Positions 17,601 through 26,092 of a stretch of 64,000 bases of DNA are shown piece by piece. The DNA lies in contig KB445807.1 of NCBI GenBank assembly GCA_000320605.2, positions 38,809 to 102,808 of the forward strand. Direction: 5' to 3'. The notes below the pieces were generated by a model that did not search any database, had not been told where the DNA came from, and saw nothing but the letters and a program-made list of their open reading frames with translations. Numbering within the stretch: position 1 is the stretch's first letter; every line of letters starts with the position of its first letter. Position numbers and translations under genes: made by a program. The DNA comes from Gelatoporia subvermispora B. Lineage: Eukaryota; Basidiomycota; Agaricomycetes; Polyporales; Gelatoporiaceae.

Positions 17601-20600
17601 ATGCAGTGCCAGCGGCGCACGATTGCTGCGTGCGGCACTACCTTCGAAGTGGTCGCAAATTTCAAGTATGTGATGGAGTTCCCGGAGGAGGAGGGCTTCC
17701 CTGTTGTCGTGGTGCAGTGGCCAAGCAAACTAGAGTGGGATGCAGTCAGGAAGGTTTCTGGTATCAGTTCGAGCGTATGTTGACACTCTACTCGTTCGTC
17801 CAGCTCACAAAGTTACCTTACGCGTCTAGCACATACTACGCAAGAAATGTTTGCGCGAGCTCAAGTTCGTATGCGTGCGTTGTTCTTGAGACAGAGCAAC
17901 AGCTTGATGCAGCCCCGATTTAGGTTACTGAGAAAGTTCCACGGGAGCAACCAGGTGCTCAAATTTAGCACTGTATCGATCGAAAGTAAAACTCATCGAA
18001 ATCTAGATCGAGAATTTGCATGCTCCAGATCTACTGGTTCAAGCAGACGGCGATTTCGACGAGCTCTACCTCTACGTGTGTTGTCAGTTTCAAGCATCCG
18101 GGAATAAAAGCCTTACGCCCTCTACCAGCGAGACTTATTTCTCAGCGGCACTGAAGACCGCAAGAGCGCACTCGCTCGCATGGGCTATCTGCGAGACCAC
18201 GCAAGTACACTTATTTGCCCGTAATTCGAGCCCGCTCACATTGTGGACAATCCACTAGATTCCTAAAAGGGAAGAAGACGTGCGCAGAAGCTGGCGGATC
18301 GGCGCCGAGCGGCACCGAAGTGTCGTCTACGACATTCTCCGGGGCTTGCACTACATCCATTCTGCGGGAGTTATTCACTGCGATATTCGCCCGGGGAGTA
18401 TCCTCGTAGATGAGCGTCTGCTCGCCATAATCAGTGCCTTCGGTCTTGCTCGAAAGTACAAATCCGATGGTCACAACAACCGCAACAGCTCTCCGGCGAA
18501 GAAGGGATATGTGGTTGTGGACGATGAGACGCTGTGGTACCGAGCACCTGAATTTATGCTTGGATTTGACAATTGTGTTAGTGACACGCTCCAATTTAGG
18601 GACGCTCACATACTGACCAGAAATAGGGACCGGCAGTCGATATGTGGTCAGTAGGATGTATTCTAGCGGAATGCCTCCTCGGAAAGCCCCTCTTTCAGGG
18701 AAAAGAGTACGTTGTAGACTTTGGGTTGAGGCATCAAACCTGACTTGAAGTCGCAACTAGCTGCCTGAACATGTTGCACCGGATCGTTGACTATCTCGGC
18801 AAACCACCTGACAGCGTCTTCCGTAGTATTCGTTCTGCCCGTGTATGTCCAGTGACGCATTGGAAGTGTTGCAGTATTTTGTTTACTCTTTCTTTCTTTC
18901 TGCCCTCAACCCTGTAGGTGCGAGATTACATTCACTCACTACCAGATAAGCCACCCGTGCTACTGTCGAGGTTGTTTCCCGACGAAGATCCCCTCGCGAT
19001 CGAAATCCTTGAACAAATGCTGGATCTAGACCCCGAGAAGCGCATATCCACCGAGAAAGCTCTTGAACATCCCTATTTTAGCTTCTTCCGCAACAAGAAG
19101 TCGGAGCATAAGTGTCGCTCGGTAAGTTCCCTTTGCTACTGTATGACGCATACTTCTGATGAATGTGCAATGGACACGGTGCATTGTGCAGTTAGTGGAC
19201 TTCTCGTTTGAGAAGGAATACAAAACCGAGAAGCTGAAGCGTCTCATTGCGGATGAGGTGAACACCTTCTACAAGAAACTTCCTTGGACGGTGCGGGATT
19301 GGGATCAAAAAAGCTGGGTCAACTCCTTCACAGACAAGGTTCGTGGCAAAGCACCATCAGCAGAAAGGTGAGAAATCATGAGGGTCTTTGACTTGACTCG
19401 TATCTGACATACCCAACGTTCATAAGCAGCACTCCTCGCCTCTCGAGCAGGACAATTCTGTACCCTCCATACCAAGAAGGCGATGTCGGATTTGGAACTG
19501 CCGCTGGACAGAAGGCACGATTCCGACTTGACAACTCCAGCGAGGAACTTGAGAATGCTCTGGTCGACGTCAAGATGTATAGCGAAGCAAGGTTTGTGCT
19601 TCTGCCATCTATCAACAGTGATCACATGTTTGACGCGTTCGACATAGCGAAGTACAGACGTTCCTGTCGCACTTGAACGCTTGCTATGACCGGATCATCA
19701 AAGCGGAGCAGCGGTTCATCATGTACAAGGTTCTGCATAGTCCACGATCTGCAGTCTCTTCGACTAACGAGATATTCGGCAGCATTCGCTGCGGCAGCTC
19801 GTAGCACTTTGTGATATTTATGCGAATGTCCACGCAAATGATTCAGCCACCACTCCAAAGACGAGTAAGTAGCATATATATCACTTATCATTGGTTATAT
19901 GACGCTGTTTACCATAGGTTCAGAAATGACTGCAGCACTAGATTGGTTCGACGCACTCTGCCATTGGTTGGAAACCAAAGTGACGTTTGATCCAATTTCT
20001 ATCGTAATGAATTACGTCGATGTGGAGGCCCAGCTCATGTCTTTCTTTTCCCAATGCCCATGGCCCGTACGCGAGGTGAGAGAAACTCTTTCGGGTGATT
20101 ACAGACGTTTTATCGTTCAATCAAATAGGCATACTTTGAGTCTGTCAACTCGACCCCGCAATCTCTGTCGCCTACCTTTTCGGAAGTCTTGGACGGTATC
20201 CGAGTTCTAGCTGCGAATCATGAACTGGTAGAGCGAGTTGCATTACTCAGCGGCGACGAGGCGGAGGTATTCGCTGACATACTAGACAAGGTGTGTTCCC
20301 ACTGCTGTGCATCACATTGGTCCTGACTCGCGGGTCCAGGCGCTCAACATCATAGATAACTCAGATCGTCTCCGCCGGAAAGCGTTTGATCTGTTAAGGC
20401 GAATTTGTGGGCTCAATCACATCATTCCGAGGTCGTTCACCCTGTCTCCTGATGCGACACAGCTCTTGAGCGATCGACCTGAGGCATCGGGCGGTTTTGC
20501 GGATATTTGGCGAGGCCTATACAGTGGCCGTACCGTCGCTTTCAAAGTGTTCAGAGTTTACAGGCTCGAAGAAGCAAGCGGTGGTCAAGCGGAGCTGAAG

Positions 20601-21556
20601 GTAGTTTACTAAACATGCGCCGCAGCCGAAAATGAGCTCACGTAGCATAGGATGTTTTTCAAGAGGCAGTGGTCTGGAAACGTCTTCAACACCCAAACAT
20701 CACGTCGCTGTATGGGATCGATGAAACTACGTTCCCGTCGCAAGTAGCACTTGTGTCAGACTGGATGCCTCATGGCACTGTGGCAAACTATTTGAACGAG
20801 AACATTCAAGCTAATCGACTCCAATTAGTAAGTCCCCGCAAACACTTGCATCGATGTATTTTGATTCTTAAGCGAACAGGCTTTGGGTATCGCATCTGGT
20901 TTGCAATATTTGCACGAGATGAACGTCGTTCATGGCGACATGAAGAGCGTGAGTAGTTCATTCCGACCCTCTGATCTGATTCACTAACCTACACACGTGT
21001 CAACACACAGGCAAATGTTCTGATCAACGAGCACCGCATTGCATGCATATCTGATTTTGGCCTTGCGGCATTAAACTACTCGAGTAAACTAGTGACATTG
21101 TCCGTCCAGGCGGGTTCAACACGCTGGATGGCACCTGAACTCCTCGATCCAGAGCACTTTGGGCTTGAGCGTGCTGAGCTATCTGCTCAAAGCGATATCT
21201 TTGCACTCGGAATGATCATCTGGGAGGTGAGTTGCGTACGATGTCACTTGTCCGATCTTGAGAGTAATGTTGTTTTCAAGCTGTTCACAGGGCGCATCCC
21301 ATACTACCATCTACAGAAAGATGCTCAGGTCATGTCCAGCATCTTGCGCAACATGCGACCTCTACGCCCTGTCCAAGCTGTGTCATTCGGACTCGATGAT
21401 GATATCTGGGAACTAGCAGAAGCATGCTGGGCAGAAAATTTGCGGGAACGCCCTCCTATGGCAGTGGTACTCGGTCGACTGAAGGATGCTTTGACTCGTT
21501 ATGGTGAAGCTGAGACATCGAACGAACCCCAAGTATGGCCACTTGTATTGACCTAG
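17601..21556 (+). CDS. MAPK-derived pseudokinase fused to a TKL kinase, tandem copy 1
   Basis: Exons: 17601-17774, 17830-17864, 17924-17954, 18007-18075, 18133-18204, 18259-18576, 18627-18706, 18761-18842, 18918-19121, 19192-19367, 19427-19591, 19648-19729, 19783-19864, 19918-20075, 20129-20290, 20340-20600, 20651-20827, 20880-20948, 21011-21226 and 21281-21556, giving 962 residues. Residues 1 to about 470 are an SLT2-like MAP kinase with dead motifs: PEEEGF for the glycine loop, AVRK for [12 protein letters not shown] for [12 protein letters not shown] for CDFG, and [16 protein letters not shown] where SLT2 has TEY. The SLT2 tail follows ([18 protein letters not shown]). Next is a helical linker with [11 protein letters not shown] and [11 protein letters not shown]. 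The C-terminal part is a TKL kinase of the agaricomycete type: [10 protein letters not shown], Lys in VAFKVFR, HGDMKSANVLI, ISDFGLA and [11 protein letters not shown]. Predicted role: signalling, with the dead half as scaffold or regulator. The exon 5/6 junction is the least certain part. Confidence 0.82.
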
Positions 21557-25100: not shown

Positions 25101-26092
25101 CAGGCCGAGTTGAAGGCATGTGTCTCTGATTTAGGGTATGTTGTACTTGATATCGATGTTCATGACGCGAATATAGGATGTCTTCCAAGAAGCCGTGGTC
25201 TGGAAACGTCTCCAGCACCCGAACATCGCGCCGCTATACGGGATCGACGAGACGACGTTCCCATCGCAGGTGGCACTCGTCTCTGACTGGATGCCCCACG
25301 GCACTGTGGCCAGCTATCTCAACGAGAACACGGCTGCAAACAGAGTCAAGCTAGTGAGTATCCATTTCAACCTTGTATCGTCGCAATCAGATCATCCTGG
25401 CCGCGAATAGGCTCTCGAAATTGCGTCTGGCCTACAATACCTGCACGAGATGAATATCATCCACGGAGACATGAAGAGCGTGTGTAGCCCTCCCACTATA
25501 ACGTATTTAGACTCACTCACGCGACCCCGCCACCTGCAGGCCAACGTTCTCATCAACGCGCACCGCGCCGCGTGCATCTCCGACTTCGGTCTCGCCGCGC
25601 TCGCCTACTCGAGCAAGCTCGTGACCGTCTCCGTGCAGGCAGGCTCGACGCGCTGGATGGCGCCCGAGCTGCTCGACCCGGAGCAATTCGGGCTCGTGCG
25701 CGCGGAGCTCTCCACGCAGAGCGACGTCTTCGCGCTCGGAATGATCCTCTGGGAGGTGCGCCACCAGCATCACGGCCCAAATCCCATCGAACTCGGATAC
25801 TAACCAGGGTTCCTAGCTGTTCACGGGCCGCATCCCGTACTACCACCTGCAGAAGGACGCGCAGGTCATGTCGAACATCTTGCGTGCCATCCGGCCCAAG
25901 CGGCCTGCACAGGCGGGCCCGCTCGGCCTCGACGACGACATCTGGGCGCTGACGGAAGCGTGCTGGGCGGACAACCTGCAAGAGCGTCCTCCAATGACGG
26001 CCGTCATTGTACGTCTGAAGGACGCACTTGCTCGTTTCGGTGACGCCGAGACGTTGGACCCGCCCCCGGTATGGCCATTGACTGTGGACTGA
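22113..26092 (+). CDS. MAPK-derived pseudokinase fused to a TKL kinase, tandem copy 2
   Basis: Exons: 22113-22280, 22330-22364, 22423-22453, 22506-22574, 22627-22698, 22765-23079, 23128-23207, 23258-23339, 23398-23601, 23655-23830, 23884-24051, 24145-24226, 24279-24360, 24415-24572, 24623-24784, 24855-25115, 25177-25353, 25411-25479, 25540-25755 and 25817-26092, giving 960 residues. The layout equals copy 1, and 17 of 20 exons have the same length. In the MAPK-like half the glycine loop is PEEDGC, the beta-3 Lys is kept (VVKK), HRDLKPGN is [12 protein letters not shown] is SSFG, and the lip is [16 protein letters not shown]. The SLT2-like tail is present (IGFGTEAG, REELETAIAN). The TKL half keeps SGGFADVWRG, VAFKVFR, HGDMKSANVLI, ISDFGLA and [11 protein letters not shown], so it is probably active. 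The intron at 25116-25176 begins with GC, where copy 1 has GT. The 3' half has higher GC at third codon positions than copy 1. Confidence 0.85.

What the first reader, a model, noticed from the sequence alone, without database searches (positions are those of the whole stretch)
17601..26092. Two tandem genes fuse a dead SLT2-like MAP kinase to a TKL kinase
Each gene encodes about 960 residues: a complete MAP-kinase-like half with the SLT2 C-terminal tail, then a helical linker, then a TKL kinase half. The TKL half keeps its Lys, HGD..KxxN and DFG residues. A MAPK pseudokinase joined to an active TKL kinase is an architecture I do not know from any described pathway. It suggests a signalling protein in which the MAPK half docks or senses cell-wall-integrity partners and steers the TKL kinase.
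Basis: partly seen in the sequence, partly recalled or inferred. Interest (0 to 1): 0.9.

Follow-up and report, generated by a model that had tools for sequence, protein, structure and literature searches.

The report
Dead MAP kinase fused to kinase
A wood-decay fungus carries two neighbouring genes that each join a complete but inactivated copy of the cell-wall-stress MAP kinase SLT2 to a second kinase that looks intact, a combination for which I found no description and that may be a signalling switch built from a duplicated gene.

Summary
Confirmed. In Gelatoporia subvermispora B two adjacent genes (17601-21556, 22113-26092) each have 20 exons in equal phases and equal public proteins of 962 and 960 aa. 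Exons 1-11 match, exon for exon, the true SLT2 gene next door (15614-13765, minus strand); exons 12-20 encode a whole TKL kinase whose helical start also opens unfused relatives. So a full-length SLT2 copy was joined to a full-length TKL. The MAPK half lost Gly loop, DFG Asp, TEY and the aligned docking patch; the TKL half keeps its catalytic residues. Between the two genes all parts except one insert show purifying selection (pN/pS 0.14-0.39; 1.05 in the insert). The genome has three more such loci: one whose MAPK half looks active, one uncertain, one pseudogene. Obba rivulosa has both halves as two annotated proteins on contigs of equal reported length. MAPK-style docking is not supported. 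Best guess: the pseudo-MAPK half regulates the TKL in cis; untested. No transcript data were seen.

The parts
17601..21556 (+). Fusion gene 1 (CERSUDRAFT_87399, 962 aa): 20 exons 17601-17774, 17830-17864, 17924-17954, 18007-18075, 18129-18200, 18259-18576, 18627-18706, 18761-18842, 18918-19121, 19192-19367, 19427-19591, 19648-19729, 19783-19864, 19918-20075, 20129-20290, 20340-20600, 20651-20827, 20880-20948, 21011-21226, 21281-21556
   Evidence: final model equals the public protein
17601..19591 (+). Gene 1 exons 1-11: SLT2-derived pseudokinase with complete C-terminal tail (no Gly loop, AVRK, HCD, AFG, VVD)
19648..21556 (+). Gene 1 exons 12-20: helical N-terminal region plus TKL kinase (VAFK, HGDMKSAN, DFG)
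22113..26092 (+). Fusion gene 2 (CERSUDRAFT_118131, 960 aa): 20 exons, same phases as gene 1; intron 16 is GC-AG
22113..24051 (+). Gene 2 exons 1-11: SLT2-derived pseudokinase with tail (no Gly loop, VVKK, HCD, SFG, TVD)
24145..26092 (+). Gene 2 exons 12-20: helical N-terminal region (exons 12-16a) plus TKL kinase
13765..15614 (-). True SLT2/MPK1-type MAPK gene, 430 aa, 11 exons, divergent neighbour; catalytic motifs, TEY and docking patch present; likely parent of the MAPK halves

Best explanation
Two paralogous genes encode one-chain tandem kinases. Shown by sequence: a complete SLT2 duplicate (11 exons, stop lost) is joined through an intron to a complete TKL gene with a helical N-terminal region; the MAPK half has lost the motifs for nucleotide binding and catalysis, the TEY switch and the aligned docking patch, while frame and sequence stayed under purifying selection except in one insert; the TKL half keeps its catalytic residues. 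Inferred: the TKL is the enzyme, and the pseudo-MAPK half, with its conserved alpha-C segment and C-terminal tail, is an allosteric or partner-binding module that holds or releases the TKL, as pseudokinase domains do in other tandem kinases. The helical region would pass on the change.
For: Models equal public proteins. Exon-by-exon match to the neighbouring SLT2 gene. Unfused TKL P0122 and metagenomic TKL P0124 start at the exon-12 equivalent; upstream of the P0122 gene the fetched 2 kb give no MAPK match. Purifying selection in both halves and in exon 11, with shifted-frame control. The same losses in both genes and in Obba P0003 (HCDIRPGS, Asp for the Tyr of TEY, acidic residues in place of the Gly loop), so the dead state is probably old and kept. 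Same order of parts at C6:885,657-889,388 and at two C3 loci. Trees of the two halves agree on ((L030,L031),(Obba,(g1,g2))).
Against: No transcript, protein or activity data; cis-regulation is untested. The model of the whole protein is poor (mean pLDDT 55.9, residues 1-140 at 24-35), so no domain interface can be read. The MAPK half evolves faster than the TKL half (pN about 0.27-0.30 against 0.10). The insert in the MAPK half shows no constraint. Of five loci one is a pseudogene and one is of uncertain integrity, so the family also decays.
Confidence: 0.5

Rival explanations
1. Two separate genes (a MAPK relic or short gene and a TKL gene) that gene finders join by mistake.
For: In Obba the two halves are annotated as two proteins, P0003 ending at the exon-11 equivalent and P0121 starting at the exon-16 equivalent. 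In gene 2, retention of intron 11 would give a stop at once (read). In L029 the exons around the joint (10-13) were set by hand with genes 1 and 2 as guide; the automatic model differed there.
Against: Only 56 and 93 nt lie between exons 11 and 12 of the window genes; exon 11 has lost the SLT2 stop and the frame runs on through a phase-2 intron in both; exon 11 itself is under purifying selection; the arrangement is kept at several loci; P0121 is labelled partial, so the Obba split looks like an annotation break.
Confidence: 0.05
2. The pseudo-MAPK half titrates or mimics SLT2 for its substrates or transcription partners, like the yeast SLT2 pseudokinase Mlp1/Kdx1, and brings the TKL to them.
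For: Mlp1 is a pseudokinase that works non-catalytically with Slt2 at promoters (PMC8836261, passages). The C-terminal tail of SLT2 is well kept in the fusions.
Against: In yeast the mechanism needs phosphorylation of Slt2/Mlp1 by Mkk1/2, whereas the TxY site and the aligned docking patch are lost here.
Confidence: 0.2
3. An integrated-decoy sensor: the SLT2 copy is bait for something that attacks SLT2, and the TKL triggers the response, as hypothesised for some wheat tandem kinase proteins.
For: Extra or dead domains of such proteins are hypothesised decoys (PMC10260399, passages); the family was found in one fungal family only in the listed hits, is duplicated, evolves faster in the SLT2 half and is partly decayed.
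Against: No attacker of SLT2 is known here; no excess of amino-acid change except one short insert at pN/pS about 1.
Confidence: 0.12
4. One reading: the MAPK half docks or senses cell-wall-integrity partners as a MAPK does.
For: Clear SLT2 descent. Gene 2 keeps an acidic pair just beyond the docking patch.
Against: Aligned docking patch and TEY lost in both genes and in Obba.
Confidence: 0.08
5. Relics without function.
For: L031 is a pseudogene; L030 is very divergent; the insert shows no constraint.
Against: No stop in 20 exons of either gene, purifying selection in all other parts, catalytic residues of the TKL kept.
Confidence: 0.05

Closest known systems
SLT2/MPK1-type MAP kinase (fungal MPS1; the neighbouring gene at 15614-13765)
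   Same: Descent, 11 exons and their order, C-terminal tail
   Different: Catalytic motifs, TEY and aligned docking patch lost; insert of about 20 aa; fused to a kinase
Mlp1/Kdx1, the SLT2-like pseudokinase of budding yeast (PMC8836261, passages)
   Same: Catalytically dead SLT2 relative
   Different: Mlp1 is not known to be fused (recalled); here TxY is lost, while Mlp1 is phosphorylated by Mkk1/2
TKL kinases of Agaricomycetes (PMC2838846, passages) and the TK-related fungal lineage FslK (PMC3937382, parts 1 and 2 of 3)
   Same: Kinase half with its catalytic residues, without the TK motif AARN, with CW..RP; both groups are expanded in mushroom-forming fungi according to these papers
   Different: Only 16 of 241 FslK members had a further domain according to PMC3937382; its supplementary list was not seen. 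Which of the two groups the kinase half belongs to was not tested
Tandem kinase-pseudokinase proteins (wheat WTK: PMC10260399, passages; animal JAKs: recalled)
   Same: One dead and one apparently live kinase domain in one chain
   Different: There the halves are of other kinase families (recalled); here an SLT2 MAPK and a TKL, in a fungus, pseudokinase first

Membership tests
SLT2-type MAP kinase | Sequence and gene descent from SLT2 | tested here: met
   Best PDB match of the gene 2 half is MPS1; exon-by-exon match with neighbour SLT2; tree
SLT2-type MAP kinase | TxY activation loop | tested here: not met
   VVD in gene 1, TVD in gene 2 and Obba; SDY in L029
SLT2-type MAP kinase | Gly-rich loop, catalytic Lys, HRD, DFG | tested here: not met
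   [33 protein letters not shown] (genes 1/2). Lys kept in gene 2 only; all four kept in L029
SLT2-type MAP kinase | Acidic common-docking patch (name and place recalled) | tested here: not met
   HDPADEP aligned to RNKKSEH (gene 1) and SKPRINE (gene 2, ED follows just beyond)
Active TKL kinase | Catalytic Lys, HxD..KxxN, DFG, APE | tested here: met
   VAFK, HGDMKSAN, SDFG, MAPE in both genes
Active TKL kinase | Nearest to TK/TKL kinases by sequence and fold | tested here: met
FslK (TK-related fungal lineage) | Lacks the TK-diagnostic residues: no AARN; Pro at the fourth place of the GXR(L/M) motif | tested here: met
   KSAN; AIRP in gene 2, NMRP in gene 1; features as given in PMC3937382. They separate from TKs, not FslK from TKLs
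FslK (TK-related fungal lineage) | Place in the FslK clade of the kinase tree | not tested
   No FslK reference set was at hand
Tandem pseudokinase-kinase proteins | One dead and one live-looking kinase domain in one chain | tested here: met
Tandem pseudokinase-kinase proteins | Pseudokinase regulates the kinase in cis | not testable with these tools
   needs protein
Mlp1/Kdx1-like SLT2 pseudokinase | Stand-alone protein, phosphorylated by Mkk1/2 (on TxY: recalled) | tested here: not met
   fused; TxY absent
MLKL-like four-helix bundle before a TKL | Fold of the helical region | tested here: inconclusive
   Helices predicted at low confidence (P0122 residues 1-120 at pLDDT 53-74; gene 2 residues 471-580 at 40-75). 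Pfam at E<=10: 3 of 4 sequences without a match, gene 1 one sub-threshold match, E 0.11. PDB profile search: 4 rows at E 0.24-1.7, three of them MLKL chains but at chain residues 234-282, not at an N-terminal bundle

The most novel reading that the evidence does not exclude
A new class of one-chain signalling switch: an SLT2 MAPK was first fused, still active, to a RAF-like TKL kinase (stage kept at the C6 locus, where both halves look active), and in the line leading to the window genes the MAPK half was turned into a dedicated, nucleotide-free sensor, possibly a decoy of SLT2, that controls the TKL.
Probability: 0.25. Interest if true: 0.8.

Novelty: new variant of a known kind. Interest (0 to 1): 0.62.

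Why it matters
Tandem kinases with one dead domain are known, but I found none made from a cell-wall-integrity MAPK and a TKL. One genome holds the probable parent SLT2, a fusion whose MAPK half still looks active, two fusions with dead MAPK halves, a divergent copy and a pseudogene. That series makes the order of events (fusion first, loss of catalysis later) testable and offers a natural experiment on how a MAPK becomes a regulatory domain. It also gives a foothold on the function of the TKL kinases that are expanded in mushroom-forming fungi.

Tried and rejected
Rejected or left open: (a) chance or mis-joined frames: against this stand the shifted-frame control and identity with public models. 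(b) Two trial splice models of gene 1 had wrong sites; the first open model used an AAG acceptor at intron 5, and an alternative read exon 5 in another frame. Both were replaced by the GC-AG intron of the public model. The selection figures were made with the first open model; one search repeats them with the final one, with the same result. (c) A fusion-specific linker: rejected, unfused TKLs have it. (d) MLKL-like bundle: not shown. The fold search of P0122 tested residues 183-472 only, so the helical region is untested; MLKL is not among the 50 rows shown. (e) Alignment A2 put MAPKs on the TKL half and was not used. (f) Single origin of all fusions: not settled. First TKL tree (18 rows): the Obba fragment P0125 fell among the fusions (81/81). 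After I dropped two rows (L034, P0134) the six fusions were one side of a branch with support 37/0. MAPK tree (14 rows; L030 and L031 cut short): L029 lies outside the other five (100/98), but holding all six together is not rejected (p-AU 0.36). L030 is a long branch. (g) L029: the automatic splice model differs at exons 10-13; I set introns 10-13 by hand with the phases of genes 1 and 2 in mind, so its 'same phases' there are no independent evidence, and its exon 11 is shorter than that of SLT2. L030 exons 9-14 come from the automatic model and are unsure. (h) Literature: all 10 searches used. I judged by titles and abstract starts of the listed rows; lists were capped (for example: 12 of 40: 15 of 62: 12 of 16: 8 of 10,412). 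Subscription papers and supplements were not seen. (i) Protein searches see only proteins of limited length among word-sharing candidates; 120 of 637 hits, 2 of 2 and 120 of 128 were listed. Of the 120 rows I read 13 sequences, of the 120 I read 22. A split annotation elsewhere would be missed.
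Full report
What is there. The window lies in contig C17 of an assembly (38809-102808) that protein hits identify as Gelatoporia subvermispora B, a polypore of the family Gelatoporiaceae. I made splice models by hand from the raw sequence (wrong trial versions). Gene 1 runs 17601-21556, gene 2 22113-26092, both on the + strand, 556 nt apart. Both have 20 exons with the same phases. Gene 2 equals the public protein CERSUDRAFT_118131 (P0001, 960 aa) letter for letter. Gene 1 equals CERSUDRAFT_87399 (P0002, 962 aa) when intron 5 is read as a GC-AG intron with donor GCAAGT and intron 10 with its other acceptor; both choices follow P0002. 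Pfam sees two kinase stretches in each.

Where the MAPK half comes from. The next gene upstream, on the other strand (15614-13765), is a normal SLT2/MPK1-type MAPK of 430 aa in 11 exons with Gly loop, [18 protein letters not shown] and the acidic docking patch HDPADEP. The first 11 exons of both fusion genes match its 11 exons one by one, up to the last residues before its stop codon. The best solved relative of the gene 2 MAPK half is the fungal MPS1 (206 bits). So a full-length SLT2 copy, introns included, was taken up.

What happened to it. In gene 1, gene 2 and the Obba relative P0003 the Gly loop reads [16 protein letters not shown] and [16 protein letters not shown] reads HCDIRPGS in all three; DFG reads AFG, SFG and GFG; TEY reads VVD, TVD and TVD; the docking patch is lost at the aligned place in all three, though gene 2 has an acidic pair just beyond it; about 17-20 residues were gained after LYLY. 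The shared changes are most simply older than the gene 1/gene 2 split and than the split from Obba rivulosa, which is in the same family.

The second half. Exons 12-20 encode a helical region and a TKL kinase with VAFK, HGDMKSAN, DFG and APE. The same helical region opens two unfused kinases, P0122 on contig C1 of the same genome (472 aa) and the metagenomic P0124; about 2 kb upstream of the P0122 gene give no MAPK match (L033). So the 'linker' is the natural N-terminal part of this TKL group. It has no Pfam match above a cut-off (one sub-threshold match, E 0.11) and no credible PDB sequence match (best E 0.24). AlphaFold2 of P0122 (11 sequences, mean pLDDT 78.5) gives helices 8-27, 32-51, 60-77 and 88-100 before further helices and the kinase, with pLDDT 53-74 in residues 1-120. 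The kinase part is RAF- or TK-like in fold. The model of the whole gene 2 protein is poor (6 sequences, mean pLDDT 55.9).

Is it a real gene. Comparing the two paralogues with the final models, pS is 0.74-0.83 outside the insert, so dS is saturated or nearly so, but pN is far lower. pN/pS: N-lobe 0.35, C-lobe and tail 0.35, exon 11 0.39, helical part 0.27, TKL 0.14. Bootstrap intervals (1000 resamplings of codons, made with the first open model): 0.24-0.48, 0.29-0.42, 0.27-0.59, 0.21-0.34, 0.10-0.18. The same bases in the two shifted frames give 1.04-2.52. The insert (43 codons) gives 1.05 in frame and 0.86 and 0.69 shifted, so it carries no coding signal and its splice model rests on the public annotation. 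Both halves and the exon at the joint are thus kept as protein. The joint intron is 56 and 93 nt long, which leaves no room for two genes (inference).

How wide is it. In the own genome, searches with the MAPK half and with the helical part show both at five loci: the two window genes, C6:886-888 kb, and two on C3 (921-924 and 930-932 kb). The C6 gene (L029) can be read as 20 exons and 884 aa; its MAPK half keeps GQGAHG, AIKK, HRDLKPAN, DFG and IDPKDQP, with SDY for TEY. Its exons 10-13 were set by hand, with genes 1 and 2 as guide, and differ from the automatic model. The first C3 gene (L030) can be modelled without a stop but its middle exons are unsure; the second (L031) has two in-frame stops and HGVIKS in the TKL, a pseudogene; its public model P0123 (479 aa) skips much of the MAPK part. 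In a database of about 5.8 billion proteins, three searches listed no further protein that matches across both halves (120 of 637 hits listed; 2 of 2; 120 of 128); hits not listed were not seen. Obba rivulosa has P0003 (MAPK half, 531 aa, 50% identical) and P0121 (TKL half, 331 aa, partial, 73%), both on contigs reported as 159,981 bases, most simply one contig and a split annotation of the same fusion; I could not read that contig.

Order of events. Trees of the MAPK halves (14 rows) and TKL halves (16 rows) agree on ((L030,L031),(Obba,(g1,g2))). In the MAPK tree the five form one clade (100/98) next to SLT2 of the same genome (87/92); L029 is apart, but one clade of all six is not rejected (p-AU 0.36). 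In the TKL tree the five have 86/96, and L029 and the Obba fragment P0125 stand next to them in an open fork; with two more rows P0125 fell among the fusions (81/81). One fusion followed by later loss of MAPK catalysis is the simplest reading; two fusions remain possible, the more so as the joint of L029 is not certain.

How it may work. The TKL half is the likely enzyme. The MAPK half can hardly bind ATP (no Gly loop, acidic residues in its place, no DFG Asp) and cannot be switched on TxY or dock D-motifs in the usual way (inference from motifs). Since it is nevertheless conserved, a role as regulatory or partner-binding domain is most likely. Parallels: the yeast SLT2 pseudokinase Mlp1, which works non-catalytically with Slt2 (PMC8836261, passages), and tandem kinase proteins of wheat, in which one kinase domain is often dead and some domains are hypothesised decoys (PMC10260399, passages). 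JAK kinases are a further parallel (recalled). None of this is tested here.

What is known. TKL kinases are numerous in Laccaria bicolor (PMC2838846, passages), and a TK-related lineage, FslK, is expanded in Agaricomycetes, with only 16 of 241 members having an additional domain (PMC3937382, parts 1 and 2 of 3). Whether the kinase half here is an FslK or a TKL in the strict sense was not tested. No title or abstract start listed in my searches describes an SLT2-TKL fusion.

Verdict. I rate it a new variant of tandem pseudokinase-kinase proteins, interesting for its visible evolutionary series.

Noticed in passing
13765-15614 (-): Canonical SLT2/MPK1 MAPK gene, divergent to the fusion pair, 1,987 nt between start codons; probable parent.
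   Followed up: yes
L029 (C6), about 1158-4889 of the locus: A third fusion whose MAPK half keeps its catalytic motifs (SDY in place of TEY): possibly two active kinases in one chain.
   Followed up: partly
L030 and L031 (C3, 921-925 and 930-933 kb): Two further fusion loci close together; L031 is a pseudogene (two in-frame stops, catalytic Asp of the TKL lost); L030 very divergent.
   Followed up: partly
gene 1 intron 5 (18201-18258), gene 2 intron 16 (25116-25176): GC-AG introns by the models, one in each fusion gene, at different places.
   Followed up: yes
22113-26092: Third-position GC differs between parts: gene 2 MAPK half 0.54, helical-TKL half 0.72; gene 1 0.60 and 0.53.
   Followed up: no
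17601-26092, exons 5-6 of both genes: Insert of the MAPK half shows no coding constraint between the paralogues (pN/pS 1.05 in frame).
   Followed up: partly
26861-28158 (-): NmrA-like NAD(P)-binding protein gene downstream of the pair.
   Followed up: no
40464-42638 (+): Frame with GATase, IGPS and PRAI domains: a multifunctional tryptophan-synthesis gene.
   Followed up: no
5640-6338 (+), 34752-35618 (-), 38505-39251 (-): Frames of a short-chain dehydrogenase, a mitochondrial carrier-type protein and an LCAT-type acyltransferase.
   Followed up: no
P0125, Obba rivulosa (protein only): TKL fragment with a degenerate DFG (GFQ) near the fusion TKLs in the tree; may be part of another, decaying fusion.
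   Followed up: no
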